Made by a program: the position numbers and the translations under genes. Of a stretch of 64,000 nucleotides of DNA, positions 14,249-51,725 are shown piece after piece. Location of the stretch: NCBI GenBank assembly GCA_963682175.1, contig OY821771.1, positions 29,532,201 through 29,596,200 on the forward strand, in the 5' to 3' direction. Source of the stretch: Triglochin maritima (taxonomy: Eukaryota > Streptophyta > Magnoliopsida > Alismatales > Juncaginaceae). Positions within the stretch are counted from its first letter, which is position 1, and each line of letters begins with the position of its first letter. The notes under the pieces were generated by a model. That model saw nothing but the letters and a program-made list of their open reading frames with translations. It was not told where the DNA came from and made no database searches.

Positions 14249-14996
14249 TTGAATCCAGGCAACTTAACCGCAAGTACATGATGTGGAGAAGACCCGGCAA
14301 ATACCGGTCAATCCCACGAGAAATTCTGTGTCCTTAAACAAAGTCTCAATCCATACTTGAATGGAAATATATATGGACAGGAGATTGATAACACTACACA
14401 CTTGAATCGAAATTGCAACTAATGTAACAACTAAACTAACCACTAAGTAGGAAATTAAGTGATGAGAAAAGCAATTTAAATGAGCTTGAGGATGAAGAAG
14501 TATGTAGTGACAAGTGTGCAAATGTGTATGTCATACACATTATATTAAGTAAAAGTGAGTGTGTGATTGTACTAACCATGATAGTTAGTGTCGAAACCAT
14601 TAATTTCTAGTTCATAACATATGTATCAATTCAAAGCATGAAAACATGCACTAAACTTGTATATTATAAACATTAGCTTAACCTAAGATCCTATAGTCAT
14701 CATTCGGATATTAAGAGTTCAAAACTACAAGAAGTGCAAACATGAAACATGCATCAAAGCTAGAGACATACACATCAACGTATTACATTCAATAGATATA
14801 GTGACATGCAAGCATGAGAAGAAATCTTGCTAGCATGATCAATCAAGATCCTAAGTGGTCATTGACCCATCATACCTAAGCATCAACCACAAACATGTAT
14901 AGATCTAAGCATTTATAACAAAAAATGTACAAAAACTGCCTACACGTAACAAACACATCCATAACTACATCATCATCCACCCTTAAGGATGAATCT
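14249..14996 (-). mobile_element. Athila-like LTR, left part
   Basis: Near the left end it has TTAACCGCAAGTAC..GACCCGGCAAATACCGGTCAATCCCACG, the reverse-complement R/U5 signature of the Athila-like LTRs in this window. It breaks off at 14996 where the Gypsy G1 LTR begins, and a matching tail resumes at 35702-36041. Compared with the complete relative at 1439-3018, several hundred bases between the two parts are missing, so the host LTR also suffered a deletion. The exact start (TGAATCC at 14249) is uncertain and no target duplication is evident. Confidence 0.6.
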
Positions 14997-16012
14997 TATA
15001 ACATCCCGAAACAGCGGAAATTTTGAAAATTCATAATCACAACAATAAAGGCTAATAATCAAAGACGGGACTGTTACTTCTCATAAAACAAATAGTGGTG
15101 CACCAAATTACATCAGAGTTTGTCAAAATGATACATGATTACAACAGAACAACAAAAGAAGATAAAACGTAATCATGTTGACCTCAGTGGTCCGAGTAGA
15201 GGATCCGACTCCAAAATGCGCGTGCCCGCCGATCACCACCCAACTGGACCTACTGCGGTCCTGAAAAATATATAACAACAATGCCTGAGTTTCCAGAAGG
15301 AAACCCCGTATGCCAACTCACCTATATGCATGCGTTACACAAATGAACTTATCATACTAGTAGCATGTCATGGTATCAACAGAAAGGAAAACAGTTTCCC
15401 CGAAGGGTAAAACAGGACATCAGTCCGACAGTCAACATCGGGTCTCCCGAGGAGACCTACCGCAGGCACATGTGGTCTTACAGCACGCGACATCGCACCT
15501 CCCACACGCGGCTACACTACACAAGGGTTCGGCAGGGAGCCTCTGTCACGCCTGCGGGCCGATAGAAAACAGATCTGCAAATCTCTGTGGTCGGTGCCAC
15601 TGGGGACCAACGGGGCCGTCGCCCGGAAGGTATAACAACATCATCTCGATATGTGCCCAGTCGAGGAATCAACATAGCCGGAACAGCCTCGGCCCAACAA
15701 TCATCATCGCCGGCACAACCTCGGCGGCATCACCGGCACAGCATCGGTGGTCCATCACAAACGTCCGGCACAGCATCAGACGGGTCCAGATCGAAGTATG
15801 CCAGGTCATCAGGCTCCACGAGCCGCAAACACCAACCACGCCGCTATAAAAGCAGGGCAGCGACCTCCGTAGTCCATAGGCCGGTAGTCACCTCACCCAA
15901 CGCCAGGTGCGTGCCCGCACAAACATCATACATTGGGATCCGTGATCCCTCAGGCCTGCTACATTACAATGAGTCCAAACAATCCATCATCTTAGTCACG
16001 GTCCATACTGCA
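14997..16012 (-). repeat. G1 3' LTR, left part
   Basis: Starts TATAACATCCCG (TG changed to TA) and matches 33186-34075 from position 15114 on. It contains the short stems GGTCTC/GAGACC (15441-15457) and ACCGCA/TG(T/C)GGT just after it. It stops at 16012, where a Sirevirus LTR begins. Confidence 0.85.
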
Positions 16013-17521
16013 GGATCGTGTGGGTTATGGGTCTAACATTAAGGCTAATTAACAAATTTAATCCTAATCAAACTCTACTTGTTTAGACAATGAAAAGATG
16101 CAGCGGAAATTAAAACAAATACATAAGTAGGAAATAGAAAATGCAAACCACAAGCACACGGGGGATTTATAGAGGTTCGGCACCCCACCGGGTCCTAGTC
16201 CTTCTTGTAAGCTCCGCTCGACTCCGCGAGCTCCGCCTACGTCTTCACTAACCACTCCCCGTTCCGGGCCGGGAGAGAACGCCTTTTACAAAACAAACTC
16301 CGCGAACAACCTCGCGAGCTTGACTTTCTTCTCTCACAATCCGAGAGGAATGCTTCGGGCTTTCACCGAAACCTTTACTTCACTTTGATAGCAACAAACT
16401 TGAGTGGAATACACTCTCTAAACTTGAGCACACTTGAATGAGATTGGATTTGTGATTAAAGTGTGGAAGGTTTGAGGCTTTGAGTGTGTTGGGTTTCTCT
16501 CTAATGCATTGGACAAGTATGAGTGGGAGAGTTGTGTTAAAATGTGTTTTACAACTCCTTATATAGGCATTAGAGAGAATAGAGTCGTTGGGATTGATTG
16601 AGTATGAGTTGATGTGTGATTACACAAAACAGAAAGTTCAGAACCCAATTCTGGCTGAATTCAGTCGACCGAAACGGGAAGAACGGTCGACCGTTAGACA
16701 GTTTTTCACTAAGATCGGTCGGCCGGTTAGGCAACGGTCGACCGCCCAACTCCACGACTTAGGTACACTTAAGTCATCGGTCGAACACAAGAAAGAGGTT
16801 CGGTCGACCGATTTTGTCCAGGCACTTTGGGGTTGACAAACAATTTGGTATTCGGTGGACCGAAACAAGTTTGGCGGTCGACCGATTTTGGGCAGGAGAT
16901 TTGGGTTTGTCAAGAGATGAACAAACGCTCGACCGATCGTGGTCCTCGGTCGACCGATACATGAAATGTATTTGGGGTATTTTTGGTTTAATACGAATAC
17001 GACCGTTGGGTATATACGACAAAAGTAACGGTCGAAAAATAAGTTCGGACGGTCGACCGAAAGGCAAAACACGGTCGACCGAAAATGGGCAGTGAAAACA
17101 CATATAGGATTCTTGGTCATCCGGTCGACCGAACGGCCTGTTGCGGTCGACCGAATGTGGGCAGACTTTCAGAGTTCAGGTTTAGTGTTTTCCGGTCTAA
17201 GTTTGGGTGATCTATTGAAGTCCAAATAATGTGAAATTTCGTGTGTGACTTCTATAAGGAACCTAGTGTGTGATTAAGTTGATTTTAGCTCAAGTATGCT
17301 CAATTACACTTTGTTCCTAAGACTCAAAAGAAATCAAGATTACATGTCTTCGATATAGCTTTAATTACATGTCTTGACTTCATTTCCATCTTTCTTGAGT
17401 CTTGATCACCTGTAGAGGTTAGCACAATACAATATATATGCAATGCATAGTGTGTGCTACTCTAATTAAGATTAGGTTGATTAAATCATCAAAACGTAAG
17501 ATTAAGGCCAAAAAGCCAACA
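16013..17521 (-). repeat. Sirevirus-like LTR A (3' LTR)
   Basis: On the minus strand it begins TGTTGGCTTTTTGGCC, right after the polypurine tract, and ends ..CCCACACGATCCT. A TATATAA box lies on the minus strand at 16559-16565. Upstream of it, at 16660-17152, the U3 region contains at least nine exact GGTCGACCG motifs plus several one-base variants. The outer boundary may be either 16013 or 16019. Confidence 0.85.
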
Positions 17522-17784
17522 ATCTCCCCCTTTTTGATGATGGCAACTGATATCTTAATACTTGAAATTTGTATATGTAAACTATGCATATAAATGCTCC
17601 CCCTATGGATGTGCATAGTTTTTGTTCAAATTTTACCCCCTTAATTATCTCTCCCCCTTTGACATCCATAAAAAACATTGATAATTATATAAGTCAAAAG
17701 GATGTCATCGTAATGAAGTTGCTCCCCCTAAATTTTGCACTTCATTACTCTAATAAAAGATATAACATTTAAGCTCCCCCTATC
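17522..17784 (-). promoter_or_regulatory. Cluster of polypurine tracts before LTR A
   Basis: On the minus strand AGGGGGAG appears at about 17524, 17597, 17651, 17723 and 17774, with a further GGGGG at about 17634. The one touching the LTR (AAAAAGGGGGAGAT) is the probable second-strand primer. Multiple such tracts are a known Sirevirus trait. The same cluster is at 22735-22997. Confidence 0.8.
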
Positions 17785-18126
17785 AATAAGGCTAAATGAA
17801 AACAATGAGTATGATGAAATTTTATGTTCAATTAAGTTTCTACTTAAGCCTTATTCCAACATCCATTTAAAATTGACATTTAAAATCAATGGATGTGATA
17901 TATGATTGATTTGCAATGAATGGGGTATATGATTTGCAATGAATTAAACATCTAAGGATATGACAATTAAGCATATAAAGACTAGACTTGAACCAATTTG
18001 ATTGAAAAGTTTATAGGATGGGAAATTATACCAACTTGAAGCATGAATTTGTTCCAACCTCATTTGGTGATGCAACCGGATTTGAATTTGACTCTTGAGC
18101 TCACCCGGTCACCACCAATCTCCTCC

Positions 18127-21100
18127 TCAAGCACCTACAAGTGTAGATTTAGGTACCCAAACAACTTTGGGTCCTTGAATGTTAGCTTTGGGAATCCAAA
18201 CCATTTTGGTTTTGGGAGCCCACACACTTGAAGAACTATGGTTAATGAACATATGCTTGTCATTTAGTGTAGTGTGAGATACATGATTTTTCAATTTAGA
18301 GTTGTATCCTAAACCATGTTTTTGCAAGGATTGTCTTTGACTGCTGTTGAACGTTTTAATTAAACCGCAAGTGCACGGCCGCGATGAAGCGGTGGCAAGT
18401 ACGGGTCGTCCTCTGGGAGGTGAGTAGCCTCTTGCTTGTACGAAATCAAGTGGCAAAATAGGGAAGAGAAAGATTGATTATGCTAATCTAGACTACGCTA
18501 CACTAAAAAGTATGAAATGCGAACGAAACAAACAAACGATGGAATAACAACTAAACTAAGAACAAAACAAGAATGCTGGAATACAGAAATGGGAAAACCC
18601 CTAAGGGGTGGAGTGAGTGCACACATGCAAAGAGGTGGGTGTAGAATACATTCTTTAAGCACATGAAGGTGGTGTTTATCAAGCATAGGAAGTGTCTAAA
18701 TGTTATGGCAAAACCTATCAATCTATTCACCAACTTAGTTGATTAACATTTACATATGCAAGGTGTTTATTTCAGAACCTAAACAAGCATGAGAGGTGTC
18801 TAATCATTTTGGCAAAACTCATCAAGTTGTAAATTCTATCCTAAACAAGCAAGCATACATTCATGTTTAATCAACACATTGAAATTAAAGCATTCATCCC
18901 ATTCTCTAATGCATGTATGTACATCTACTCCACCCCCAAAGGGGATGGAACTACTCACTAAACATTACACTAATTATTAAACTATGGAAAGAAAGCATAT
19001 TAAAACTAAGCTAGAATTAAAAGACGATTAAACTAAAACATGCACAACAATAAAAGAAGCATAAAACAAACAATGAAAGAAACATAAAACTTTATTGATA
19101 AAATGACTCACATTAAAAGTAGCATCCTCCTACTTTAGTGTGTGCTTCAAGGCCTCACTTCTAGTAGGAAGAATAGCCACTTAAAATATGGAGTGATTAC
19201 AATGGAAGGTGAAGAGTTCTATTTATAGCCATGGAAAAAGGCAAACCGGGACAATCCCCCGATGTGGGACTAAACAAACACCAAAAATAGCCTAAACGAA
19301 CATTAATACAAGTCCAGGAGAAATTTGAGCGCATTGGGGCCAAAAGTGACCGCTAATTAGCGGTCTACAGTGTCCGGATCGGTCTGGAATTTCTTGTGGG
19401 CTTTTCTGGAAGGCTTTGTTGGTATTTGATGCATCTATTTTGCATGTTGGAGCTCCGACCCGAATAGAATTGCCAAAATACTCCCCATGATGGTGAGGAG
19501 TATTCTGTTTTGCTCTTAGGTCCTTCGGTCTTGCATTCAGGTCCTTCTTCCTTGCATCTTGGTCCACAGATCTCACAATTCAGTCCTTTTTCCCAGCTTT
19601 TGGGTCCTTTTATGCTTCATCTCTTCAAACCTATTTATTCCTGAAAACTAAACATAAAACTCGTAACATAGCATTATTTAGGTGAAAGATAATGGATATA
19701 AGATACAAATATGAGCATGAAATGATGTCAATCAACTACCTAATAACATGTTGAGCATATGAGTTCCATTTGTGAATCTTTCTAAATCTTTTCTTAATTG
19801 CAAGTTACAAGCTTGAAGATTTAGTTGATCACAATCTATGGGTGTTGCTTTTAATTTATCAATATTTGATGCATTCTTTTCAAATTTAGCAATCACCTCA
19901 TTCTTCTCATTCATGCATGTTTCAATTTGACTTTGGAGATCTTTGATTAACTTTCTAGCATTCTTGTTTTTATCACAAATGATCTCATATTGTTTAACTA
20001 AGTCATGAAATGCATTTTGAAGCTCATCATGTGTGTAATTTTCTTCATTAACACTAGAATGTGAGCTATCACTATAATAAGACTTAGTTGAGCATGAATT
20101 ATTAGAGCAAGAGTTAGATTCTACCTCACTTCCTTCATCTTGAATTGCCATGTAGCACATGTGTGCATATTTTTTTGTTGATGAAGGTGTGGTTGATTTG
20201 GATGACGATGAAGACGATGAATCATCCCATGTAGCCTTGTGAGCTTCCAACCTCTTTTCTTTTCTCTTACTCTTCTCCTTTTCTCTTCTTCTCTCCCTCC
20301 TCTCATTTTTCTTCTCCTTCTCTTTTCTCTCATTTCCACTCTCTTCGTTCTCCTTCTTTTCTCTCTTTTCACTCCTTCTACCTCTTCTTTCATTCTTTTC
20401 TTCTTTATCCTTCTTGAGGTATTTGAAGAAGTCTTTGGCTAGGACTTCAATGTCCTCATCTTCTACACTCCTCCTTGGTTCATCTAAATTTGCATGTAAT
20501 GCCAAGGTGGATTTGTTCTTGGTGGCTTCCTTCTCCTTCCGATGGTTGATTTGAAGTTCATAAGCCATCAAGTTTCCAATGAGCTCCTCCATCTTTAATT
20601 TTGAAAGATCATGCGTCTCTTCAATTGCGACGACTTTATCTTCCCAATCGATGCTAAGTGACCGGAGGAACTTCCTTGTCATCTCTCCTTTATTGATTTT
20701 TCTTCCAAGAACCAAAAGAGAGTTAGTGATATCGGTGAAGCGAGTGTTCATTTCGCTTATGTTTTCACCGATTTGCATAGAAAAAATCTCATATTTATGC
20801 ATGAGGAGACTAATGCGGGTTTCCTTAGTTTTGCTATCCCCCTCATGATGCATTTGCAATCTATGCCAAATCTCATATGCACTAACACACCCTCTAATCC
20901 TATTATATTCACCCTCATTTAGCCCACAATATAGAATGTTCATAATTTTTGAGTTCATCTCAATTTCTTTCATTTCGGGCCTAGTGAGTGAATCTAATTC
21001 ATCTTCATTTGGGGGTGTGTATGGATTTTGGAGAAACATCCAATACTTAAGGTCATTAGAAATTAGGAAAATCTTCATCCTATTCTTCCAATAATCATAA

Positions 21101-21168
21101 TTTGACCCATTAAGCAAAGGAGGTCTAGTGGTGCATAAACCCTCTACATGATTAGATGTACTAGCCAT
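18127..21168 (-). pseudogene. Sirevirus-like gag, interrupted by a solo LTR
   Basis: True ATG at 21168. The 478-codon part to 19735 opens MASTSNHVEGL and has a DUF4219/UBN2-type Copia gag domain (GSNYDYWKNRMKIFL, IWHRLQMHHEG, LRSLSIDWEDKVVAIEET). A long charged region follows, rich in K, E and R (20240-20460), then a serine run and a predicted coiled coil. The remaining 70 or so codons lie at 18344-18127 and end with repeated WxPKxN/T motifs (WAPKTK, WIPKAN, WVPKST). Removing the solo LTR (18345-19734) and one 5-bp copy restores one frame with no other stop. Gag would build the virus-like particle. No protease, integrase or reverse transcriptase follows. No zinc knuckle is visible. Confidence 0.85.
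18345..19734 (-). mobile_element. Athila-like solo LTR inside Sirevirus gag
   Basis: Starts TGTTGAACG, ends GATGTCAATCA; 1390 bp. Flanks are ACTGC (18340-18344) and ACTAC (19735-19739). The uninterrupted second gag copy at 23553-23558 shows that ACTAC is the original target. Same family as the LTRs of the element at 43081-51720, including ACCGCTAATTAGCGGT at 19350-19365. Confidence 0.92.
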
Positions 21169-21206
21169 GCTAAAAATGCGATTAAGTATAGAATTTAGCT
21201 AACAAG

Positions 21207-21218
21207 GCTCTGATACCA
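21207..21218 (-). promoter_or_regulatory. tRNA-iMet primer binding site, first interior
   Basis: A perfect TGGTATCAGAGC on the minus strand, separated from LTR B by a few bases. The equivalent site of the second interior (24947-24957) has lost one base and reads TTGTATCAGAGC. Confidence 0.9.
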
Positions 21219-21223
21219 AATTT

Positions 21224-22734
21224 AGGATCGTGTGGGTTATGGGTCCAAAATTAAGGCTAATTAAAAAATTAATCCTAATCAAACTCTACTTGTTTAGACA
21301 ATGAAAAGATGCAGCGGAAATTAAACAAATACATAAGTAGGAAATAGAAAATGCAAACCACAAGCACACGGGGGATTTATAGAGGTTCGGCACCCCACCC
21401 GGGTCCTAGTCCTCTCTTGTAAGCTCCGCTCGACTCCGCGAGCTCCGCCTACGTCTTCACTAACCACTCCCGGTTCCGGGCCAGGAGAGAACGCCTTTTA
21501 CAAAACAAACTCCGAGAACAACCTCGCGAGCTTGACTTTCTTCTCTCACAATCCGAGAGGAATACTTCGGGCTTTCACCGAAACCTTTACTTCACTTTGA
21601 CAGCAACAAACTTGAGTGGAATACACTCTCTAAACTTGAGCACACTTGAATGAGATTGGATTTGTGATTAAAGTGTGGAAGGTTTGAGGCTTTGAGTGTG
21701 TTGGGTTTCTCTCTAATGTATTGGACAAGTATGAGTGGGAGAGTTGTGTTAAAATGTGTTTTCCAACTCCTTATATAGGCATTAGAGAGAATAGAGTCAT
21801 TGGGATTGATTGGGTATGAGTTGATGTGTGATTACACAAAATAGAAAGTTCAGAACCCAATTCTGGCTGAATTCGGTCGACCGAAACGGGAAGAACGGTC
21901 GACCGTTAGGCAATTTTTCACTAAGATCGGTCGACCGGTTAGGCAACGGTCGACCGCCCAACTCTACGACTTAGGTACACTTAAGTCATCGGTCGAACAC
22001 AAGAAAGGGGTTCGGTCAACCGATTTTGTCCAGGCACTTTGGGGTTGACAAACAATTGTGTATTCGGTCGACCGAAACAAGTTTGGCGGTCGACCGATTT
22101 TGGGCAGGAGATTTGGGTTTGTCAAGAGATGAACAAACGGTCGACCAATCGTGGTCCTCGGTCGACCGATACATGAAATGTATTTTGGGTATTTTTGGTT
22201 TAATACGAATACGACCGTTGGGTATATACGACAAAAGTAACAGTCAAAAAAATAAGTTCGGACGGTCGACCGAAAGGTAAAACACGGTCCACCGAAAATG
22301 GGCATTGAAAACACATATAGGATTCTTGATCATCCGGTCGACTGAACGGCCTGTTGCGGTCGACCGAATGTGGGCAGACTTTCAGAGTTCAGGTTTAGTG
22401 TTTTCCGGTCTAAGTTTGGGTGATCTATTGAAGTCCAAATAATGTGAAATTTCGTGTGTGACTTCTATAAGGAACCTAGTGTGTGATTAAGTTGATTTTA
22501 GCTCAAGTATGCTCAATTACACTTTGTTCCTAAGACTCAAAAGAAATCAAGATTACATGTCTTCGATATAGCTTTAATTACATGTCTTGACTTCATTTCC
22601 ATCTTTCTTGAGTCTTGATCACCTGTAGAGGTTAGCACAATACAATATATATGCAATGCATAGTGTGTGCTACTCTAATTAAGATTAGGTTGATTAAATC
22701 ATCAAAACGTAAGATTAAGGCCAAAAAGCCAACA
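21224..22734 (-). repeat. Sirevirus-like LTR B (shared middle LTR)
   Basis: Full-length copy; between matched TG and CA ends it is 1504 bp against 1503 for LTR A. Differences from A are scattered and are often CG to TG or CA changes inside the GGTCGACCG motifs. It acts as 5' LTR of the first interior and 3' LTR of the second. Confidence 0.87.
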
Positions 22735-23338
22735 ATCTCCCCCTTTTTGATGATGGCAACCGATATCTTAATACTTGAAATTTGTATATGTAAACTATGC
22801 ATATAAATGCTCCCCCTATGGATGTGCATAGTTTTTGTTCAAATTTTACCCCCTTAATTATCTCTCCCCCTTTGACATCCATAAAAAACATTGATAATTA
22901 TATAAGTCAAAAGGATGTCATCGTAATGAAGTTGCTCCCCCTAAATTTTGCACTTCATTACTCTAATAAAAGATATAACATTTAAGCTCCCCCTATCAAT
23001 AAGGCTAAATGGAAACAATGAGTATGATGAAATTTTAAGTTCAATTAAGTTTCTACTTAAGCCTTATTCTAACATCCATTTAAAATTGACATTTAAAATC
23101 AATGGATGTGATATATGATTGATTTGCAATGAATGGGGTATATGATTTGCAATGAATTACACATCTAAGGATAAGACAATTAAGCATATAAAGACTAGAC
23201 TTGAACCAATGTGATTGAAAAGTTTATAGGATGGGAAATTATACCAACTTGAAGCTTGAATTTTTCCAATCTCATTTGGTGATGCAACCGGATTTGAATT
23301 TGACTCTTGAGCTCACCCAGTCACCACCAATCTCCTCC

Positions 23339-24908
23339 TCAAGCACCTACAAGTGTAGATTTAGGTACCCAAACAACTTTGGGTCCTTGAATGTTAGCTT
23401 TGGGAATCCAAACCATTTTGGTTTTGGGAGCCCACACACTTGAAGAACTATGGTTAATGAACATATGCTTGCCATTTAGTGTAGTGTGAGATACATGATT
23501 TTTCAATTTAGAGTTGTATCCTAAACCATGTTTTTGCAAGGATTGCCTTTGACTACCTAATAACATGTTGAGCATATGAGTTCCATTTGTGAATCTTTCT
23601 AAATCTTTTCTTAATTGCAAGTTACAAGCTTGAAGATTTAGTTGATCACAATCTATGGGTGTTGCTTTTAATTTATCAATATTTGATGCATTCTTTTCAA
23701 ATTTAGCAATCACCTCATTCTTCTCATTCATGCATGTTTCAATTTGGCTTTGGAGATCTTTGATTAACTTTCTAGCATTCTTGTTTTTATCACAAATGAT
23801 CTCATATTGTTTAACTAAGTCATGGAATGCATTTTGAAGCTCATCATGTGTGTAATTTTCTTCATTAACACTAGAATGTGAGCTATCACTATAATAAGAC
23901 TTAGTTGAGCATGAATTATTAGAGCAAGAGTTAGATTCTACCTCACTTCCTTCATCTTGAATTGCCATGTAGCACATGCGTGCATATTTTTTTGTTGATG
24001 AAGGTGTGCTTGATTTGGATGACGATGAAGACTATGAATCGTCCCATGTAGCCTTGTGAGCTTCCAACCTCTTTTCTTTTCTCTTACTCTTCTCCTTTTC
24101 TCTTCTTCTCTCCCTCCTCTCATTTTTCTTCTCCTTCTCTTTTCTCTCATTTCCACTCTCTTCCTTCTCCTTCTTTTCTCTCTTTTCACTCCTTCTACCT
24201 CTTCTTTCATTCTTTTCTTCTTTATCCTTCTTGAGGTATTTGAAGAAGTCTTTGGCTAGGACTTCAATGTCCTCTCTTCTACACTCCTCCTTGGTTCATC
24301 TAAATTTTCATGTAACGCCACGGTGGATTTGTTCTTGGTGGCTTCCTTCTCCTTCCGATGGTTGATTTGAAGTTCATAAGCCATCAAGTTTCCAATGAGC
24401 TCCTCCATCTTTAATTTTGAAAGATCATGCGCCTCTTCAATTGCGACGACTTTATCTTCCCAATCGATGCTAAGTGACCGGAGGAACTTCCTTGCTTATG
24501 TGTTTCACCGATTTGCATAGAAAAAATCTCATATTTATGCATGAGGAGACTACTACGGGTTTCCTTAGTTTTGCTATCCCCCTCATGATGCATTTGCAAT
24601 CTATGCCAAATCTCATATGCACTAACACACCCTCTAATCCTATTATATTCACCCTCATTTAGCCCACAATATAGAATGTTCATAATTTTTGAGTTCATCT
24701 CAATTTCTTTCATTTTGGGCCTAGTGAGTGAATCTAATTCATCTTCATTTGGGGGTGTGTATGGATTTTGGAGAAACATCCAATACTTAAGGTCATTAGA
24801 AATTAGGAAAATCTTCATCCTATTCTTCCAATAATCATAATTTGACCTATTAAGAAAAGGAGGTCTAGTGGTGCATAAACGCTCTACATGATTAGATATG
24901 CTAGCCAT
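23339..24908 (-). pseudogene. Second Sirevirus-like gag copy, broken
   Basis: ATG at 24908 (MASISNHVERL). Same protein as at 21168-18127 but with several lesions. About 77 bp are missing at 24494 (equivalent to 20679-20755), which shifts the frame. One base is missing in a CTCATC motif at about 24286. A TAG replaces a serine codon near 24033. The C-terminal third, from about 23977 to 23339, is open and continuous, and shows what the first copy looked like before its solo LTR insertion. It ends with the same WAPK / WIPK / WVPK motifs. Confidence 0.85.
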
Positions 24909-24962
24909 GCTAAAAATGCGATTAAGTATAGAATTTAGCTAACAAGGCTCTGATACAAATTT

Positions 24963-25977
24963 AGGATCGTGTGGGTTATGGGTCCACAATTAAAGCTAAT
25001 TAACAAATTTAATCCTAATCAAACTCTACTTGTTTAGACAATGAAAAGATGCAGCGGAAATTAAAACAAATACATAAGTAGGAAATAGAAAATGCAAACC
25101 ACAAGCACACGGGGGATTTATAGAGGTTCGGAACCCCACCCGGGTCCTAGTCCTCTCTTGTAAGCTCCGCTCGACTCCGCGAGCTCCGCCTACGTCTTCA
25201 CTAACCACTCCCCGTTCCGGGCCGGGAGAGAACGCCTTTTACAAAACAAACTCCGCGAACAACCTCGCGAGCTTGACTTTCTTCTCTCACAATCCGAGAG
25301 GAATGCTTCGGGCTTTCACCGAAACCTTTACTTCACCTTGGCAGCAACAAACTTGAGTGGAATACACTCTCTAAACTTGAGCACACTTGAATGAGATTGG
25401 ATTTGTGATTAAAGTGTGGAAGGTTTGAGGCTTTGAGTGTGTTGGGTTTCTCTCTAATGTATTGGACAAGTATGAGTGGGAGAGTTGTGTTAAAATGTGT
25501 TTTACAACTCCTTATATAGGCATTAGAGAGCATAGAGTCGTTGGGATTGATTGGGTATGAGTTGATGTGTGATTACACAAAACAGAAAGTTCAGAACCCA
25601 ATTCTGGCTGAATTCGGTCGACCGAAACGGGAAGAACGGTCGACCGTTAGGCAGTTTTTCACTAAGATCGGTCGACCGCCCAACTCTACGACTTAGGTAC
25701 ACTTAAGTCATCGGTCGAACACAAGAAAGGGGTTCAGTCGACCGATTTTGTCCAGGCACTTTGGGGTTGACAAACAATTGTGTATTCGGTCAACCGAAAC
25801 AAGTATGGCGGTCGACCGATTTTGGGCAGGAGATTTGGGTTCGTCAAGAGATGAACAAACGGTCGACCGATCGTGGTCCTCGGTCGACCGATACATGAAA
25901 TGTATTTGGGGTATTTTTGGTTTAATACGAATACGACCGTTGGGTATATACGACAAAAGTAACGGTCGAAAAGTAAC
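24963..25977 (-). repeat. Sirevirus-like LTR C, truncated
   Basis: Matches LTR A to about 17037, then stops within the palindrome-rich U3 and continues directly into G1 LTR sequence (GGATCGTGGCGCCCACCG). It lacks its U3 start and therefore any target duplication. Confidence 0.85.
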
Positions 25978-27009
25978 GGATCGTGGCGCCCACCGTCACC
26001 TCCCGGCTCACGCACAAGGCGAGGAAACGGGTTTCCGTGGACAAAGTTGGCATTCAAAAAGGAACCAGGAATCTATTCTGGGCTCAAACGCTCAACCGTA
26101 AAAGGTGATTCAGTCGATCACTTCAATAAAGGAATCGGTCGATCGTACTCCTAACACGGTCTACCGCTGCGCTCAAAACACAATCCCCAACGGTCGAACA
26201 AAGGTCTAAAACCGGTCGACCGAACGAAGTCAAAATCCGGAGTCTAGTCAATATCAAAATCGAATCTATCGGTCGACCGACTCAGGGGTCTCGGTCGACC
26301 GAAAACTAACAAGGTCATCCTATTATTTCTTCGTCAAAACGGTTGAACGCTAACACATGCATACTCCCGGTACACTTAAGTTCCGGTCGACCGAACACAA
26401 GGAACCGGTCGACCGAACCACAACACACAGATAAAAATACACTACTTCGGTCGACCGCCCGAAGGGCCCGGTTGACCGTTGGTCGTCTTTTACCTCGTGC
26501 CAGCCGAGGTTTTACGAAGAATCTCGCCGCCGGAGAGTTCTCCAACCTCTCCCGGCCGACCAACACCTCCCCCACACTTGGGTGAGCAACCAAACCACAC
26601 TAATGAGTCGACATACCTCAATGTGCGAAGAACGATGAAGAACACCGGAGCTCCAACGACACGCCTCCAATTCGCACCTCACGCACGACCTCCTCCTCCT
26701 CGCGACGACCTCCGCACGCCCAACGTCGACGCCGACTCCCGCACCTCGCCGTCCAACTGAGCCACTGAGAAGAGGGAATGGAAATGGAGAGAATGAGAGA
26801 GAGAGAGAGAGAAACGGGTTTTCTCCACTTAAACCCAACAAAATTGCACCAACAGTCCTCTACTCAACCCAACCCATCACTCTCCCTCCAAGCCTACAGT
26901 GCACGCCCCCCCACTCTTCCCCATGCACCCACTGTGCAGCCCATCACCCCATGCAAACTCCTCCTCTAATCCCCTCATTAGCACCTATAATGGGTTTAGG
27001 GTTCTTACA
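25978..27009 (-). repeat. G1 3' LTR, right part
   Basis: Matches 34138-34797 up to 26664, then continues alone to GGGTTCTTACA, the LTR end next to the polypurine tract. Contains exact and variant GGTCGACCG motifs at 26090-26480 and a short (GA)n run at about 26796-26812. Confidence 0.85.
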
Positions 27010-27378
27010 ATCCTCCCAACTTAAAAGAATTTCGTCCCGAAATCAAAACAACAACTCATCGAAAAGCTCTGGATACTGCCTTCTGACATCCTCCTCGATC
27101 TCCCAAGTGGTCTCGCGCTCGCTGTGATGCTGCCACCGAACCTTCACCATCGAAATGGTCCTCCTCCTGAGCTAGTGATCCATGCGATCGACGATCTCGA
27201 CCGGTCTCTCCTCGAGCGACAAGTCCTGCTGAATCTCTGGCACCGCTATCTCAATAACGTGAGCTGGATCTGCAACGTACTTCCTCAGCATCGAAACATG
27301 GAAGACATTGTGAAGACCCAAAAACTACGGTGGCAATGCAATCCGGTAGGCAACCTCTCCAACTCAGTTGAGGATCTC
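27010..27378 (-). pseudogene. G1 pol C-terminus with chromodomain-like end
   Basis: The minus strand reads NVFHVSMLRKYVADPAHVIE, then LSLEERPVEIVDR, VKVRWQHHSERETTWEIEED and YPELF. This is the Tekay/Del integrase C-terminal region, ending in a chromodomain-like WExE motif. A stop interrupts it near the DRMDH motif, and another follows the LF. The upstream part of the same domain is on the far side of the G2 solo LTR at 29111-29250. Confidence 0.8.
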
Positions 27379-29110
27379 TGTAACGACCCGAAACAGCGGA
27401 AAAATTTAAAACTTAAAACATATAAGAATCAACACTGGGGTCGTCACCAAACCACAAGTATATATATAATATAAGGTGGTAAACTGTACAAGACAAGAGT
27501 CAAGCATGATTACAACCCAACACAAAAGATATACAACACATGTAAAAGAGAAAATCATCCACCTCGAAGAACAAAAAGACAGGATCTGGTCTGGGTGCTC
27601 CTGTTCGCAGTCACCACCTCCTACTGACGTGCACGACCTGACATGTAAACAAACAATGCCTGAATTTCCCCTAGGGAAACCCCGTATGCCAAACCCCTAA
27701 ATATGAACATAACATGCGTAATGAAACATGAAATGAAAAATGCAGTAAAAGCATATCAATCTCCTGTGCACACAAGGCACCGCCGGAAAATCATCGGCCA
27801 CGGGTCTCAAGGGTCCTCTCACCCCAACCCCACAATACACGTGCACACAAGGCACTCGCTCCTCAGAGCCACAACAACGTGCACACAAGGCACCCGCTCC
27901 GTAGAGCCACAACAACGTGCACACAAGGCACCCGCTCCGTAGAGCCACAACAACGTGCACACAAGGCACCCGCTCCTCAGAGCCACAACAACGTGCACAC
28001 AAGGCACCCGCTCCTCAGAGCCACAACAACGATCTTCCTCTCAGGCCGGCAATGTTTGTACCGTCGCCCCAAAAAAGGCCGGAGACCCGTTCCCCTCGAG
28101 GCGGATCCAACCACACACGACACAAGCATCCATATGCAAACTGTGCCCATTCGGTCGAACGGAAGACCCCAAACGGTCGACCGAACACCACAACTATTCC
28201 GCAGAAAAACCGAAATAACGTCCAACCGGTCGAACGGCAAAGGGGCCCCGTCCGACCGAAATCCAACAGAGAAAAATCCTCTCTAACTCAAAAAATACCA
28301 ACGGTCGAACGACTCTCAATTACGGTCGACCGATTTCCTCCAGTAGAAATCCCCAACAAATCCGCACTACACGGTCGACCGAAACCACACTCCCGGTCGA
28401 CCGGCCACTAAGTTAACTTAAGTTCCGGTCGGACGAAGTCAATGAGCGGTCGACCGTTTAGATGGTCAACGCCCCCAACCGACTTACAACAGTGCTTTCG
28501 GTCGACCAGCAAAGGGGACCCGTTCGACCGAAAACACCCAGAGTATTTTTCCCTTGTTAAAACGTACCACCCGGTCGACCACTCGAAGAGTATCGTTCGA
28601 CCGGTGCAAGGGATTTTGCTCGAATCACACTACGACCGGTCGACCGTTGTAGAGCAGAAAAGCTGCTGCAAGGTTCTCGACGAGCCTTTCGGCCTACCGT
28701 CGGCCACTCCAACCCTCGCAAAGGCTAAAAGGAGGACTACACTAAAGCTTGGCATACCTTTAAGGCTTGAAGAAGCCTTCGAAGAACCCACGAAAGTCGC
28801 CTCCACAAGCACTTCTCCTCCTTCTCCGGCGAATCCAACCGAGCAACCGATGAACACGATCCTCGCGCACTCCACTGAGTCGTCTCCTCGCCGATCCACA
28901 CCACCACACACTGGTTGGTGAGAGGGAGGGAGAGAGTTGAGCGGGGAAGAGAGGATCGCACGAGTGAGAGAGAGAAAAGTGAGAGAGAGAGAAGAGAGAA
29001 ATCCAACCTTTTATACCCAAACAAAATCAATCTCAGTCGTCCATCACGATCTCCTCTAATCTACCACCTAATCACAATTAAACCCAAATAACAAGGGTTA
29101 GGATGTAACA
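27379..29110 (-). mobile_element. Gypsy solo LTR (family G2) inside G1 pol
   Basis: Starts TGTAACGACCCG, ends TTAGGATGTAACA; 1732 bp. Target duplication ATCTC at 27374-27378 and 29111-29115, perfect; removing it rejoins the G1 integrase C-terminus. It carries at least six exact GGTCGACCG motifs between 28140 and 28645 plus variants, and a five-unit tandem repeat. The orientation is inferred from the relation to the G1 LTR ends. Confidence 0.92.
27840..28029. repeat. Five exact-length 38-bp tandem repeats
   Basis: Units start at 27840, 27878, 27916, 27954 and 27992, each CGTGCACACAAGGCACCCGC, then TCC(TC or GT)AGAGCCACAACAA. Only a few positions vary. The period is not a multiple of three, so the open frames on both strands across it are not genes. 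Confidence 0.93.
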
Positions 29111-30734
29111 ATCTCAAACGGCCCAACATACCACGGACTGAGCTTCCCCTTCTTCCCAAACCTCATCACACCTCGGGCTGGGGAAATCTTCAGAAACACA
29201 TAGTCGCCCACCTCGAAACTCAACACACGTCTGCGTCGATCAGCATAACTCTTCTACATGCTCTGTGTTGTGACCAGTCTCCTCCTGATCACCTCAACCT
29301 TCTCTGCGTACATTTGCACGATCTCTGGCCCCACTAACTGTCTCTCGCCCACATCACTCCAGCATACCGGTGATCTGCAAGGCCTCCCGTACAACACCTT
29401 GTACGGTGTCATCCCAATACTCGAGTGGTAGTTGTTGTTGTAGGCGAACTCTATCAGCGGCAAGTGCTCGTCCCAGTGCCCTGCCCAATCCAGTGTGCAT
29501 GCCCTCAGCATATCCTCCAAGGTCTGAATCGTCTTCTCTGACTGGCCATCTGTCTGAGGATGGAACGCCGTACTGAATCTCAGAGGCGTCCCCAATGCCT
29601 GCTGCAGACTCCCCCAAATCTGGAAGTGAATCGAGGATCTCGATCGGAGATGATGCTCACTGGCACTCCATGCGACCTGACTATCTCCTCCACGTACAAC
29701 TTAGCTAGACCCTCCAAAGGCAACGTGGTCCTGATCGCTAAGAAGTGCGCCGACTTGGTCAGTCGATCGACTATCACCCAAATCGCGTCGTGGAATCTCC
29801 TCGTCTTCGGCAATCCTGTGACAAAATCCATCGTCACGTGCTCCCACTTCCACTCAGGAAGCTCAATACACTGCATCGGTCCTGCTTGTCGGTGATGCTC
29901 AATCTTCACCTGATGACAGACTAAGCATCGCTCAACAAACTCTGCGATGTCCCTCTTCATGCCCTTCCACCAGAAGTTCCATTGTAGGTCCTTATACATC
30001 TTCGTGCTCCCCGGGTGAATGGTGTATCTAGCTCTGTGTGCCTCCTCCATGATGTCATCTCTCAGCCCATCGAACTTCGGCACCCACATCCGACTCTTGA
30101 ACCTCAGACCACCATCAACCCCCACACTGAAGTCTGACTCAGCTCTGGAAGCCAACTGTAGCAGACCAGCTAACTCATCATCCCCATGCTGAGCCTGTAC
30201 CACCCGTGAGACAGTCTGTGGCTCCACCCGAAGCCCAGCAATCACTGCTCCCTCTGAACCCTCTGTGAACGGTCTCCACTCTGACAATGCCTCGAGTAGC
30301 CTCCACTCCTGGATGCACAGACTCGCAACTGAAACCTCCTCCTTCCTGCTCAGTGCATCTGCAACCGAATTCGCCTTCCCCGAATGATAGGAAATGGTGA
30401 AGTCGTAGTCCTTAATGAACTCAAGCCATCTGTGCTGCCTCATATTCAGCTCCTTCTGCGAGAACAAATACTTCAGACTCTGATGATCGGTGAAGACCTC
30501 GAACTGCTCACCATACAGATAGTGCCGCCATGTCTTCAACGCGTGAACTACCGCTGCTAACTCCAGATCATGAGTAGGGTAGTTCTTCTCGTGCACCTTC
30601 AGCTGCCTCGAAGCGTACGCCACCACCTTCCCATGCTGCATCAGAACACAGCCCAAGCCAATCCCTGATGCATCGCTGTAAATCACATAGCCTCCTCTGC
30701 CACTCGGTAGAGTCAGAATCGGTGTGATCGTCAA
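29111..30734 (-). pseudogene. G1 RNase H and integrase
   Basis: From 30734 down: RNase H with [37 protein letters not shown] and TDHQSLKYL. Then the integrase zinc-finger region ([11 protein letters not shown] ... [11 protein letters not shown]), then the catalytic core with [17 protein letters not shown] and SDRDPRF, carrying the first two acidic residues of the D,D-35-E triad. The frame shifts near 29590. In the other frame TAFHPQTDGQSEKTIQTLED gives the final acidic region, followed by YGRPCRSP. Domain lengths are normal for Ty3/Gypsy. The frameshift and the later G2 insertion inactivate it. Confidence 0.9.
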
Positions 30735-30797
30735 TCGCCTCTTCAGCTCCTGAAAGCTGTCCTCGCACTTCTGGGACCAAACGAACTTGACGCCCTT

Positions 30798-31538
30798 CTA
30801 CGTCAGCGCTGTCAGCGGCGACGCAAGTCTGGACAAATCCTGGATGAACCGTCTGTAATACCCTGCCAGTCCCATAAAACTCCTGATCTCCGTCACGCTA
30901 GTCGGGGCTCTCCACTGAGTCACAGCCTCGACCTTCGCCAGATCTACCGAAATCCCATCCGCTGACACAATATGCCCCAGAAAAGCCACCTGATCCAACC
31001 AAAACTCACACTTCGTGTACTTGGCATAAAGCTGCTGATCTCTCAGGATGCTAAGCACCATCCCCAGGTGCTCTCGATGCTGCTCCCTGTCAGGCGAGTA
31101 TACTAAGATGTCGTCCACGAATACAACGACGAATCTGTCGAGGTACGGCTGGAAGGTCCTATTCATCAAATCCATGAATGTTGTAGGTGCATTCGTCAGT
31201 CCAAACAGCATCACCAAGAACTTGTAGTGGCCGTACCGCGTTCTGAAGGTTGTCTTCTTAACATCTGCCTCCCTGATCCGTAACTGGTGATAACCCGAAC
31301 GCAGATCGATCTTCGAGAACACTCTCGCTGTCTGCATCTGATTAAACAAGTCATCAATCCTGGGCAATGGGTACCGGTTCCGAACGGTAACCTTATTCAA
31401 CATCCTATAGTCAATGCACATCCACAACGACCCATCCTTCTTCTTCACGAAGAGAACAGGCGCTCCCCATGGAGAAACACTCGGTCGAATGAACCCGGAC
31501 TCCATCAACTCCTGCAACTGCTTCTTTAGCTCTGTCAA
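30798..31538 (-). pseudogene. G1 reverse transcriptase
   Basis: A clear RVT_1 domain: [68 protein letters not shown], then the connection [10 protein letters not shown] and [12 protein letters not shown]. The catalytic pair is kept as FVDD (usually YVDD or FVDD in Gypsy elements). The frame ends with a TAG at 30797, where the family continues into RNase H, so the polyprotein is broken there. Synthesises cDNA in intact relatives. Confidence 0.92.
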
Positions 31539-31667
31539 CTCAGCAGGTGCTATCCGATAAGGTGCCTTCGACTAAGGTGTTGTACCCGCGACCAACTCGA
31601 TGCTGAACTCGATCTCTCGATGCGGCGGTAATGTTGGAATCTCTGCTGGAAACACATCCGGGAACTC

Positions 31668-32252
31668 CTACACAACCTCTATGTCCTCCAGCCTCCTCGT
31701 CTCAGGATCAGGAACAACCAGCGTGGCCACAAATGCTCTGCATCCCTGATGTATCAGTCTTTGTGCCTTAACTGCAGACACAATCAAACGACCATCTCTG
31801 CTCCTCGCACCTCTGATCAAAACATCTGACAAGCCCTCCATCGGAATCAGGATCTTCTTCTCACGGTAAAAGACCTGCACGTCGTACTGTGACAACCAAT
31901 CCATCCCTAGTATGACGTCGAAGTCCTCCATCGGTAACAAGACCAGATCAGCCGGAAAATCATGGTCTCGCGAAGCAACTGTGGTGCCGGGGAAAAATCT
32001 CCCCACAGTGCCCACCTCACCCATGGGCGTGCTGACCTCCAAAACATCAGTCAGCAGCACAAGGGTCTGACCCAACTCGCCAGCAAACTTCTCCGAAATG
32101 AGGGAGTAAGTGGCACCGCAATCAAACAACACACGCGCCACCAAGCCAGAAACAGAAAGTGTACCTTCCACGACGGTGTTGGAGTCCCTCGCCTCCTCAG
32201 CCTGAATAGTGAAGACTCGCCCGGTCTTCCTGCCCTGACCCGGTGACACCAC
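31668..32252 (-). pseudogene. G1 aspartic protease region
   Basis: Contains VLFDCGATYSLIS, the DxGA active-site loop in the DCGA form common in Tekay-type elements, followed by ILGMDWLSQYDV, the family signature after the protease. It is separated from gag above and from reverse transcriptase below by stop codons (a TAG lies at 31572-31574 and another at 31667). It would cut the Gag-Pol polyprotein if functional. Confidence 0.88.
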
Positions 32253-32275
32253 AGATCGGCTGCCTCCGCCTCTGC

Positions 32276-33183
32276 CTACTGCTGGTGGTCCTGGCCTCCT
32301 GCTCGGCTACCCCTGCCTCTGAGGACAATCACGGATGAAATGTCCCATCTGACCGCAACCCATACACGCTCCAGTCCGACAGGGACACTCCTGTCCTGGG
32401 TGAAACCTCCCGCAGTAAGTGCACGCTCCTGACTGACGTGCTCCTCCTCCATCAAACTTGGGCCTCTTGCCCGGGTTTCCCGCTCCACGACCGGCTACAC
32501 GGCTACCGATGCTCACTCATACCTTCCTAGCCTCCTGAAGACACTCCCTCTGGTCCTGCTCGATGATAGTAGCATGCTTCACCTCATCTGCAAGGGTCCC
32601 CGGCATGCTGTTGATCACACATGATCAGAGCGGCTGCCTCAGTCCCTTCACAAACTTCCTCGCCTGCTGCTCTGGGGTCACACAAATCTCTGGGCAGTAA
32701 CGCTCCAAGGCGTTGAACCTGCTGATGTAGCTCGCCAGAGTCATCTCCTTCTGCTCCAGTGACATGAACTCCTCCTGCTTCTGATCCCTGACGTGTTGGG
32801 GAAAGTACAGCTTATGGAACACCTCTAAGAACTCCTCCCAGCTGACATCCACACGGTCTTCAAACAACACCGTGGATGTGGACCTCCACCAGTTGGCGGC
32901 CTCGCCATCGAACACATAGGTGGCCAGCTCCACCATCCTCTCTGGTGCTACTCCAATCGCGCGGAAGATCTTCTTTATCCTGAAGATCCAGTCCTCCGCA
33001 ACCTCTGGGGTCCTCCTGCCATCAAAACTCGGTGGGTGCTGAGGCATGAAACGATCGTGCTCAGCTCCCACCCCGCCCTGCGCATTCTGAGCCCCCTGAC
33101 GCTCCAGGAACTCGCCCAACCTGTCCCAGTGAGCGCCCGAAGTGTCGTCACTGGGATCACGACCACGTGGAGAACTCCTCACG
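32276..33183 (-). pseudogene. G1 gag, N-terminally truncated
   Basis: The segment from 33183 carries a Retrotrans_gag domain: AEDWIFRIKKIF, ATYVFDGEAANWW, WEEFLEVFHKLYFP, YISRFNALERYCPE. Stops lie at about 32624 and 32518. In the next open stretch two knuckle-like motifs appear (CTYCGRFHPGQEC and CMGCGQMGHFIRDC, the second a CCHC zinc knuckle). The coding sequence runs directly into LTR sequence at 33184, which means that the start codon, leader and primer site, along with the first 115 or so bases of LTR, have been deleted. Any upstream methionine at 33197 is LTR-derived. Confidence 0.85.
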
Positions 33184-34797
33184 CTCGAGTTTGTCAAAAT
33201 GATACATGATTACAACAGAACAACAAAAGAAGATAAAACGTAATCATGTTGACCTCAGTGGACTGAGTAGAGGATCCGACTCCAAAATGTGCGTGCCCGC
33301 CGATCACCACCCAACTAGACCTACTGCGGTCCTGAAAAATATATAACAATGCCTGAGTTTCCAGAAGGAAACCTCGTATGCCAACTCACCTATATGCATG
33401 CGTTACACAAATGAACCTATCATACTAGTAGCATGTCATGGCATCAACAGAAAGGAAAACAGTTTCCCCGAAGGGTAAAACAGGACATCAGTCCGACAGT
33501 CAACATCGGGTCTCCCGAGGAGACATACCGCAGGCACATGCGGTCTTACAGCACGCGACATCGCACCCCCCCACACACGGCTACACTACACAAGGATTCG
33601 GCAGGGAGCCTCTGTCACGCATGCGGGCCAATAGAAAACAGATCTGCAAATCTCTGTGGTCGGTGCCACTGGGAACCAACGGGGCCGTCGCCCGGACGGT
33701 ATAACAATATCATCTCGATAGGTGCCCAGTCGAGGAATCAACATAGCCGGAACAACCTCGGCCCAACAATCATCATCGCCGGCACAACCTCGGCGGCATC
33801 ACCGGCACAACATCGGTGGTCCATCACAAACGTCCGGCACAGCATCGGACGGGTCCAGACCGAAGTCTACCAGGTCATCAGGCTCCACGAGCCGCAAACA
33901 CTAACCGTGCCGCTATAAAAGCAGGGCAGCGACCTCCGTAGCCCGTAGGCCGGTAGTCACCTCACCCAACGCCAGTTGCGTACCCGCACAAACATCATAC
34001 ATTGGGATACGTGATCCCTCGGGCCTGCTATACTACAATGAGTCCAAACAATCCATCATCTTAGTCACGGTCCATACATGGAGGTGACGCGTCCCGAACA
34101 CCCACACTTTTCCACACGGCGGTCCCTGGGCAGGCACGCGGAACGCGCCCACCGTCACCTCCCGGCTCACGCACAGGGAGAGGACACGGGTTTCCGTGGA
34201 CAAAGTTGGCATTCAAAAAGGAACCAGAAATCTATTCTGGGCTCAAACGGTCGACCAGAAAAGGTGATTCGGTCGACCGCTTCCATAAAGGAATCGGTCG
34301 ACCGTACTCCTAACTCGGTCTACCGCTGTGCTCAAAACACAATCCCCAACGATCGAACAAAGGTCTAAAACCGGTCGACCGAACGAGGTCAAAATCTGGA
34401 GTCTGGTCAACATCAAAATTGAATCTATCGGTCAACCGACTCAGGGGTCTTGGTCGACCGAAAACTAACAGGGTCATCCTATTATTTCTACGTCAAAATG
34501 GTCGAGCGCTAACACATGCATACTACCGGTACACTTAAGTTCCGGTCGACCGAACACAAGGAACCGGTCGACCGAACCACAACAGACAGATAAAAATACA
34601 CTACTTTGGTCGTCTTCTACCTCGCGCCAGCCGAGGTTTTACGAAGAATCTCGCCGCCGGAGAGGTCTCCAACCTCTCCCGTCCGACCAACACCTCCCCT
34701 ACACTTGGGTGAGCAACCAAACCACACTAATGAGTCGACATACCTCAATGTGCGAAGAACGATGAAGAACACCAGAGCTCCAACGACACGCCTCAAC
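33184..34797 (-). repeat. G1 5' LTR, truncated at both ends
   Basis: Matches 15114-16009 and 26000-26664 in order, including 63 bp (34076-34138) lost from the left LTR at the Sirevirus junction. Lacks about 115 bp at the gag side and about 345 bp at the outer side. Has at least six exact GGTCGACCG motifs between 34230 and 34580. Confidence 0.85.
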
Positions 34798-51720: not shown

Positions 51721-51725
51721 AGTAA

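What the first reader, a model, noticed from the sequence alone, without database searches (positions are those of the whole stretch)
16660..34580. CGGTCGACCG palindrome clusters shared by Copia and Gypsy LTRs
Exact GGTCGACCG occurs at least nine times in Sirevirus-like LTR A (16660-17152), at least six times in the G1 Gypsy LTR (34230-34580), at least six times in the G2 Gypsy LTR (28140-28645) and once plus variants in G3 (about 967 and 62020). Flanking sequences differ between families, so this is not a shared insertion. Sireviruses are known to carry CGG-CCG palindromes in U3; finding the same 10-mer clustered in unrelated Ty3/Gypsy LTRs is unexpected. Possible causes are convergence on a host DNA-binding protein, transfer of a cassette, or shared small-RNA targeting. 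Each motif holds three CpG sites.
Basis: partly seen in the sequence, partly recalled or inferred. Interest (0 to 1): 0.75.

Follow-up and report, generated by a model that had tools for sequence, protein, structure and literature searches.

The report
Shared palindrome arrays in unrelated retrotransposons
In this plant genome the same ten-letter palindrome, repeated in arrays, sits in the control regions of several unrelated families of jumping genes, which suggests that they came to use the same DNA-binding protein.

Summary
CGGTCGACCG occurs 43 times in the window (chance 0.01) and 359,535 times in the 1.06-Gb host genome (an alismatid monocot by matK); the reversed word occurs 90 times. 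Arrays lie in LTRs of a Sirevirus-type Copia, two Copia families lacking the Sirevirus polypurine tract, and a chromodomain Ty3/Gypsy lineage including the window's G1 and G2. A 100%-identical LTR pair around a Gypsy pol carries 10 copies per LTR. Elements with another Gypsy-like gag carry none.

In 11 pairs of diverged LTRs, motif columns are 81-98% identical and flanks 47-76%. Neighbours are most often 21-22 bp apart, and longer distances favour multiples of 10.5 bp: strongly in Copia, weakly in Gypsy (absent for exact motifs). This fits a protein binding one face of the helix.

Recent cassette capture between Copia and Gypsy is unsupported; an old one is not excluded. CGGTCGACCG is published as the Vitis Sirevirus motif, and CpG islands are published for Gypsy Del LTRs. 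Identical motif and similar spacing across superfamilies appears new in my searches. The binding protein is unidentified; all evidence is computational.

The parts
16009..17521 (-). Copia (Sirevirus-type) LTR-a; array 16662-17153, 9 exact motifs
   Evidence: AGGGGGAG-AT|TG junction beside it
21221..22734 (-). Copia LTR-b, shared by two tandem units; array 21874-22366, 9 exact motifs
24963..25976 (-). Copia LTR-c, truncated; array 25615-25890, 6 exact motifs
19735..21198 (-). Copia gag ORF (Retrotran_gag_2); no pol ORF of 200 aa or more in the tandem
25986..27008 (-). G1 Gypsy 3' LTR, first part; 6 exact motifs at 26213-26457
14996..16008 (-). G1 Gypsy 3' LTR, remainder, split off by the Copia insertion; no motif
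33187..34850 (-). G1 Gypsy 5' LTR (outer end not fixed); array 34248-34574, 5 exact motifs
29111..33184 (-). G1 Gypsy gag-pol region (RVP_2, RVT_1, RT_RNaseH, integrase H2C2), about 92% DNA identity to E6
27009..27378 (-). G1 internal 3' end, beyond the G2 insertion
27379..29110 (-). G2: solo LTR of a related Gypsy family inserted in the G1 pol; flanks repeat ATCTC (27374-27378, 29111-29115); 6 exact and 7 one-mismatch motifs
37779..38984 (+). Old diverged Copia LTR, same family group; 0 exact, 5 one-mismatch motifs (decayed array)
1..2941 (.). G3 repeat (taken as an LTR), one exact motif at 967
61281..64000 (.). G3 repeat (taken as an LTR), one exact motif at 62020

Best explanation
The arrays are cis-regulatory modules in the U3 part of the LTRs: clusters of binding sites for one sequence-specific, two-fold-symmetric (dimeric) DNA-binding protein of the host. 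Neighbouring sites are most often 21-22 bp (two helical turns) apart and further sites mostly at whole turns, so several dimers sit on the same face of the DNA and can act cooperatively. They would drive, or shield from silencing, the downstream LTR promoter. Unrelated Copia lineages and a chromodomain Gypsy lineage use the same site, by convergence or by rare early gain, and each keeps the sites while the intervening DNA turns over. Shown: identity of the motif, membership of the elements, genome-wide number, constraint on the motif against its flanks, spacing preference. Inferred: that a protein binds, that it is a host protein, that it activates or protects.
For: Exact 10-mer 359,535x, reversed word 90; 47,017 pairs at spacer exactly 12, 100,280 at spacers 0-30. 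It is the commonest palindromic 10-mer in a 200-kb block, 115 against 58 for TATATATATA. The centre matters: 115 of 189 CGG-N4-CCG there are TCGA, and CGG-N5-CCG total 20. Gypsy E6: LTR 2192 bp at 100% identity, 10 motifs per LTR, Gypsy pol between; E2: 99.7%, 9 and 9, RVT_1. Motif/flank identity: copA-E5 0.90/0.48, E2-L012g 0.89/0.57, E6-L005 0.98/0.74. With motifs masked they still fall within 2 columns of each other in 9 of 13, 9 of 14 and 12 of 13 cases. Distinct adjacent distances of 28-130 bp are in phase with 10.5 bp in 31 of 33 (Copia, exact), 28 of 38 (Gypsy, up to one mismatch) and 59 of 73 (both, up to one mismatch); jitter null 0 of 1000 in each superfamily at up to one mismatch. 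In the window Copia a TATA box (956) follows the array (369-860).
Against: No binding, expression or methylation data. Gypsy phasing with exact motifs is weak to absent: 23 of 1000 jitter sets reach its 10.5-bp value and 271 of 1000 its best period; at 28-130 bp 11 of 19 are in phase and 500 of 500 uniform sets match its best period. Even at up to one mismatch 114 of 500 do. Loci L001-L008, E6 among them, were found through a 12-base-spacer pattern, so each brings at least one 22-bp pair by selection. No clear TATA downstream of the Gypsy arrays; E2 has one inside its array. Two E3 pairs show little or no excess of motif over rest (0.94 against 0.94; 0.93 against 0.84). The motif-bearing Gypsy elements are one related lineage, so Gypsy gain may be a single event, and their arrays do not co-align at depth (E2-E6 2 of 14, E2-G2 1 of 14, E6-G2 2 of 13).
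Confidence: 0.6

Rival explanations
1. Cassette transfer: a Gypsy LTR once captured the array from a Copia LTR (or the reverse) by template switching or gene conversion, and the flanks have since diverged. This concerns origin and could be true together with protein binding.
For: Families are nested in each other in this window. In masked alignments 3 of 8 Copia-Gypsy pairs exceed all 15 of their shuffles: E5-E6 6 of 9, cop24-E6 5 of 11, E5-E2 4 of 9. One 16-base E5-E6 match outside motifs has E 0.003. The best flank pair, 25 of 40, is above all 20 shuffle maxima (19-24).
Against: The near-identical LTR E5b gives 1 of 9 with E6, E5 with the E6 relative L005 gives 1 of 9, and cop16 and cop21 give 0, so the coincidences are not stable. 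0 of 1134 Copia-Gypsy flank pairs reach 28 of 40, though homologous Copia families also give 0 of 269, so only recent capture is excluded.
Confidence: 0.2
2. A retrotransposon- or transposon-encoded protein, not a host one, binds the arrays and lifts silencing (as VANC proteins do for VANDAL elements in Arabidopsis); other families parasitise it by carrying the same site.
For: VANC targets are short motifs at high density in non-coding regions that evolve rapidly (PMC5735166, abstract and passages). Copia elements in which I see only gag keep the array.
Against: VANC21 motifs are reported as enriched in one family and rare in other elements; here at least four lineages share the site. The published Vitis Sirevirus motif is identical, which fits an old, conserved factor. 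No candidate element gene was seen in the Pfam scans; I did not search further.
Confidence: 0.15
3. The palindromes matter as RNA: they fold into hairpins that seed or attract small RNAs, and the arrays are shared targets or side products of silencing.
For: All six arrays tested fold far more stably than 60 shuffles each, z -5.4 to -10.3. Palindrome regions of maize Sireviruses are reported small-RNA hotspots (PMC5311732 and PMC10760457, passages).
Against: Any array of one palindrome folds this way. Hairpins do not predict spacing at multiples of 10.5 bp out to eleven turns, nor preservation of an exact 10-mer in active families if it only attracts silencing.
Confidence: 0.08
4. Neutral amplification: local tandem duplication and CpG-rich drift built the arrays without function.
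For: Some places are triple arrays with repeated 9-nt spacers. Between recent copies the motif is no better kept than its surroundings (3 pairs).
Against: Motif columns are conserved above flanks in 11 of 20 pairs compared, in both superfamilies; 70 of 77 motif contexts are distinct; an old LTR has lost the motif (0 exact at 37779-38984).
Confidence: 0.05

Closest known systems
Sirevirus repeated motif (RM), Bousios et al. 2010, PMC2829016
   Same: Palindromic CGG-CCG boxes in high copy in the U3 half of the LTR, upstream of a TATA box. The Vitis RM is printed as CGGTCGACCG (Table 3). Linker copies are probably here too: by position I read 9 of 17 unassigned block sites as 1.3-2.2 kb upstream of Sirevirus-type LTRs.
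   Different: That paper calls the RM Sirevirus-specific and compared Ty1/copia only. Here the same 10-mer is in Ty3/Gypsy and in Copia without the Sirevirus polypurine tract, and the spacing shows helical phase, which the sections I read do not report.
5' CpG islands of Del (Tekay-type) Gypsy LTRs, Cruz et al. 2014, PMC4029996
   Same: CpG-rich, length-variable, poorly conserved region in the 5' half of LTRs of monocot Gypsy elements (sections 15, 21).
   Different: No palindrome is mentioned (term search). Here the region in a chromodomain Gypsy is an array of the Sirevirus motif. Del membership of G1/E2/E6 is not proved; Del = Tekay is recalled.
Maize Opie/Ji palindrome CACCGGAC-GTCCGGTG, also reported in Helitrons (PMC10760457, passages)
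   Same: One palindrome shared by Copia and another element class in a genome.
   Different: Other sequence; the sharing there is with Helitrons, reported as secondary-structure regions.
VANC21 target arrays YAGTATTAY (PMC5735166)
   Same: Short protein-bound motif in dense arrays in transposon non-coding DNA (passages).
   Different: Non-palindromic, same orientation, family-specific, bound by an element-encoded protein.

Membership tests
Sirevirus (window Copia, block E5) | AGGGGGAG polypurine tract followed by AT/TG at the LTR junction | tested here: met
   copA, copB and E5 all read AGGGGGAGAT|TG
Sirevirus (window Copia, block E5) | several polypurine copies in the linker | tested here: met
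   5 and 5 in the two window linkers, 4 in E5
Sirevirus (window Copia, block E5) | CGG-CCG palindromes in the LTR, upstream of TATA | tested here: met
   array 369-860, CTATATAAG at 956 in copA; in E5 a looser TATAAATA at 935 after an array ending at 839
Sirevirus (window Copia, block E5) | reverse transcriptase in the Sirevirus clade | not testable with these tools
   no pol ORF of 200 aa or more in the window tandem
Sirevirus (block E3 and locus L004) | AGGGGGAG polypurine tract | tested here: not met
   E3 reads AAGTGGGAGAT|TG, no octamer in the stretch searched; no octamer in L004 or L003 (3 kb each)
Ty3/Gypsy (G1, E2, E6) | RVT_1-type pol with RNase H before integrase, between the motif-bearing LTRs | tested here: met
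Chromovirus | chromodomain at the integrase C-terminus | tested here: met
   E6 Chromo 26.4 bits (cut-off 25.1); E2 20.8 bits, below cut-off
Del/Tekay | U5 att type A: GGG at -8 to -10, conserved -1, -2, -3, -6 | tested here: inconclusive
   LTR ends ...GTTACA give A, C, A and G at -1, -2, -3, -6, as I recall the consensus (the paper's logo is not held); in E6 and G2 GGG sits one base further out
Del/Tekay | place in the RT tree | not tested
   no reference set at hand
VANC-type anti-silencing target | bound by an element-encoded VANC protein | not testable with these tools
   no binding data
LBD/LOB-domain binding site | CGG half-sites bound by a LOB dimer | not tested
   recalled lead only; the structure paper was not held

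The most novel reading that the evidence does not exclude
One conserved plant DNA-binding protein is the common docking factor of retrotransposons from both LTR superfamilies. Unrelated elements converged on the same palindrome and a similar helically phased arrangement. It has kept its specificity since before monocots and eudicots split (identical motif in Vitis Sireviruses), and in this genome it faces about 360,000 retrotransposon sites.
Probability: 0.3. Interest if true: 0.88.

Novelty: new variant of a known kind. Interest (0 to 1): 0.7.

Why it matters
The role of Sirevirus palindromes and of Gypsy Del CpG islands was left open by the papers that described them. If unrelated superfamilies keep the same 10-mer at helical phase, the site is a functional docking site for a definable protein. 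That makes the question directly testable by pull-down, DAP-seq and reporter assays with 5-bp spacing shifts, and it points to a shared host factor that retrotransposons depend on.

Tried and rejected
Recent cassette capture: flank comparison and masked alignments gave nothing stable; old capture stays open. RNA hairpins as the sole cause: strong folding but no account of phase. Relatives outside this genome: the pair pattern in viral contigs gave 12 contigs that I did not study; I took them for phage DNA without testing. Gag homologues gave no useful species name. Solved structures: a G1 piece matches Ty3, which only confirms Gypsy. Search for a known plant factor with GGTCGACC (40 papers, 12 listed): I checked one of them, and its hit was a primer. 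The LBD idea rests on recall; the review I opened held no motif text (term search). Genome-wide counts by phase: only the 3.5-turn bin was answered (363 at spacer 25-28); the 4-turn bin did not complete, and the 3-, 4.5- and 5-turn bins were asked once without answer.

Full report
What is there. CGGTCGACCG occurs 43 times in the 64-kb window, where dinucleotide shuffles give 0.01. 41 sites lie in LTRs, and 2 in the G3 repeats, which I take as LTRs. The window is a nest. A Ty3/Gypsy element, G1, lies on the minus strand, with its 5' LTR from 33187 upwards, pol at 33184-29111 and 27378-27009, and its 3' LTR at 27008-25986 plus 16008-14996. Its 3' LTR is split by a Copia tandem, LTR-gag-LTR-gag-LTR, at 16009-25976. 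Its pol is split by G2, a solo LTR at 27379-29110 with the flanking repeat ATCTC. G1 pol has RVP_2, RVT_1, RNase H and integrase zinc-binding matches.

Genome-wide. The window lies in a 1,063,122,952-base assembly. The motif occurs 359,535 times there; the same word read backwards, an imperfect control because it has no CpG, occurs 90 times. Two motifs with a spacer of 0-30 occur 100,280 times, with spacer exactly 12 47,017 times, and with spacers 25-28 363 times. In a 200-kb block of C1 the motif is the commonest palindromic 10-mer (115). Of 189 CGG-N4-CCG in that block, 115 have the centre TCGA.

Which elements. In that block I examined five LTR pairs with coding sequence between them. E2 has LTRs of 1959 bp at 99.7% identity, 9 and 9 motifs, and a Gypsy gag-PR-RT-RH-INT. 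E3 has LTRs of 2050 bp at 98%, 6 and 6 motifs, and Copia RVT_2. E1, by LTR similarity an E3 relative, has an aligned LTR part of 709 bp with 1 and 2 motifs, and a Copia gag. E5 has LTRs of 1548 bp at 98.7%, 7 and 6 motifs, and a Copia gag (by tblastn). E4 has another Gypsy-like gag (Retrotrans_gag; no RT seen), LTRs at 99.2%, and no motif; the related window LTR at 53905-55096 has none either. E6, elsewhere on C1, has LTRs identical over 2192 bp, 10 motifs in each, and pol pieces 91-93% identical in protein to those of G1, with a chromodomain over Pfam's cut-off (in E2 it is below). Locus L004 holds a Copia RT 41% identical to E3 that ends about 260 bases before a 7-motif array; no second LTR was sought there. 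By the Sirevirus polypurine test the window Copia and E5 pass, and E3 and L004 fail. So at least four lineages carry the array: Sirevirus type, E3 Copia, L003/L004 Copia, and one chromodomain Gypsy lineage.

Of 115 block motifs, 47 fall in Sirevirus-type LTRs, 30 in Gypsy, 21 in E3 Copia and 17 were unassigned, by similarity to reference LTRs with motifs masked. Of nine 4-kb stretches on other contigs three hold motifs, 17 in all: Gypsy 9, E3 Copia 7, Sirevirus type 1. I read 9 of the 17 unassigned block sites as linker copies 1.3-2.2 kb upstream of Sirevirus-type LTRs, from their positions and allowing for the nested E3 in one case.

Constraint. I compared 20 LTR pairs. In 11 diverged pairs motif columns are 0.81-0.98 identical and the 15-base flanks 0.47-0.76, e.g. 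copA-E5 0.90/0.48, copA-cop16 0.94/0.57, E5-cop24 0.81/0.47, E2-L012g 0.89/0.57, E6-L005 0.98/0.74, E6-L002 0.96/0.69. Seven of these are Copia pairs among related copies, so they are not independent. The other nine: the decayed 38-kb LTR, 0.69/0.49; three recent pairs, no excess; two E3 pairs, 0.94/0.88 and 0.93/0.84, little excess; three deep Gypsy pairs whose alignment I do not trust. Exact words can attract an alignment, so I masked them: motifs still coincide within 2 columns in 9 of 13 (copA-E5), 12 of 13 (copA-cop16), 9 of 14 (E2-L012g), 12 of 13 (E6-L005) and 8 of 13 (E6-L002), where random placement gives 1.1-1.5. At depth within Gypsy they do not (E2-E6 2 of 14, E2-G2 1 of 14, E6-G2 2 of 13). 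I infer constraint in evolving families and none in dead copies.

Spacing. Distances between neighbouring motifs peak at 21-22 bp and recur near 31-32, 42, 52, 63, 73, 83-84, 94, 104 and 115. Several loci (L001-L008, which include E6) were found through a 12-base spacer, so they bring a 22-bp pair by selection. Counting each non-homologous spacer once, Copia distances of 28-130 bp are in the right half-turn in 31 of 33 (exact; 0 of 500 uniform sets as periodic). Gypsy gives 28 of 38 at up to one mismatch (114 of 500 uniform sets match its best period) and 11 of 19 with exact motifs (500 of 500 match), which is no evidence. Jittering the gaps by up to 5 bp destroys the signal in each superfamily at up to one mismatch (0 of 1000 each); for exact Gypsy motifs 23 of 1000 reach the 10.5-bp value and 271 of 1000 the best period. 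Raw counts, not de-duplicated, in nine whole-turn bins from three to eleven turns sum to 109, and in the nine interleaved half-turn bins to 39 (sums mine). Distances within a cluster are not independent, so I do not lean on the Rayleigh values.

Origin of sharing. Flanks of 27 Copia and 42 Gypsy motifs: no pair of 1134 reaches 28 of 40; the best is 25, shuffle maxima are 19-24. The mean, 13.5, exceeds the null 11.5, which I put down to shared A/T preference next to the motif. But homologous Copia families also give 0 of 269 at that level, so this rules out recent capture only. In masked alignments of eight Copia-Gypsy pairs, three exceed all 15 of their shuffles (E5-E6 6 of 9, cop24-E6 5 of 11, E5-E2 4 of 9) and five do not, among them E5b-E6, 1 of 9, although E5b is 98.7% identical to E5. 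Capture is thus unsupported, and an old one not excluded.

Host. matK on contig C167 is 82% identical to Butomus, 81% to Stratiotes and 80% to Aponogeton among named records (99% to an unnamed one), hence an alismatid monocot. The printed Vitis Sirevirus motif is the same 10-mer, and rice Osr8/Osr10 motifs have one central base inserted (PMC2829016; sections 6, 7, 9, 10, 11 and 19 and passages read).

Literature. That paper calls the motif Sirevirus-specific within Ty1/copia, finds mainly stress-related factor sites in PLACE, and could not name one common factor. Cruz et al. (PMC4029996; abstract, sections 14, 15, 21, passages) describe CpG islands in the 5' half of LTRs of monocot Del Gypsy elements; the word palindrome is absent. 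My searches for a published link (the lists of 12 and 83 were capped) found none; most subscription papers are outside that library, and Bousios et al. 2016 was not held.

Mechanism. I favour arrays of dimer-binding sites in U3, on one face of the helix, used by one host protein. A plant LOB-domain (LBD) protein is my lead, from recall only, because such proteins are said to read CGG-type half-sites as dimers.

Noticed in passing
window 16009-25976: Tandem LTR-gag-LTR-gag-LTR Sirevirus-type Copia with no pol ORF of 200 aa or more; block element E5 (C1 20,086,350-20,091,768) is short and shows gag homology between its LTRs, so this looks like a non-autonomous family.
   Followed up: partly
window 18352-19735: About 1.4-kb insertion in the first Copia unit, about 75% identical to repeats at 43090-44492 and 50340-51724.
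   Followed up: no
window 53905-61280: Young element (LTRs 99.3% identical, Retrotrans_gag, no motif in its LTRs) inserted in a G3 repeat; flanks repeat GGTTA.
   Followed up: partly
window 25976-25986: Right Copia-G1 junction lacks about 480 bp of Copia LTR and about 67 bp of G1 LTR compared with the other copies: a deletion across the junction.
   Followed up: no
host genome, e.g. C1:55638316-55638445: Triple arrays with repeated 9-nt spacers: local tandem duplication also feeds the arrays.
   Followed up: no
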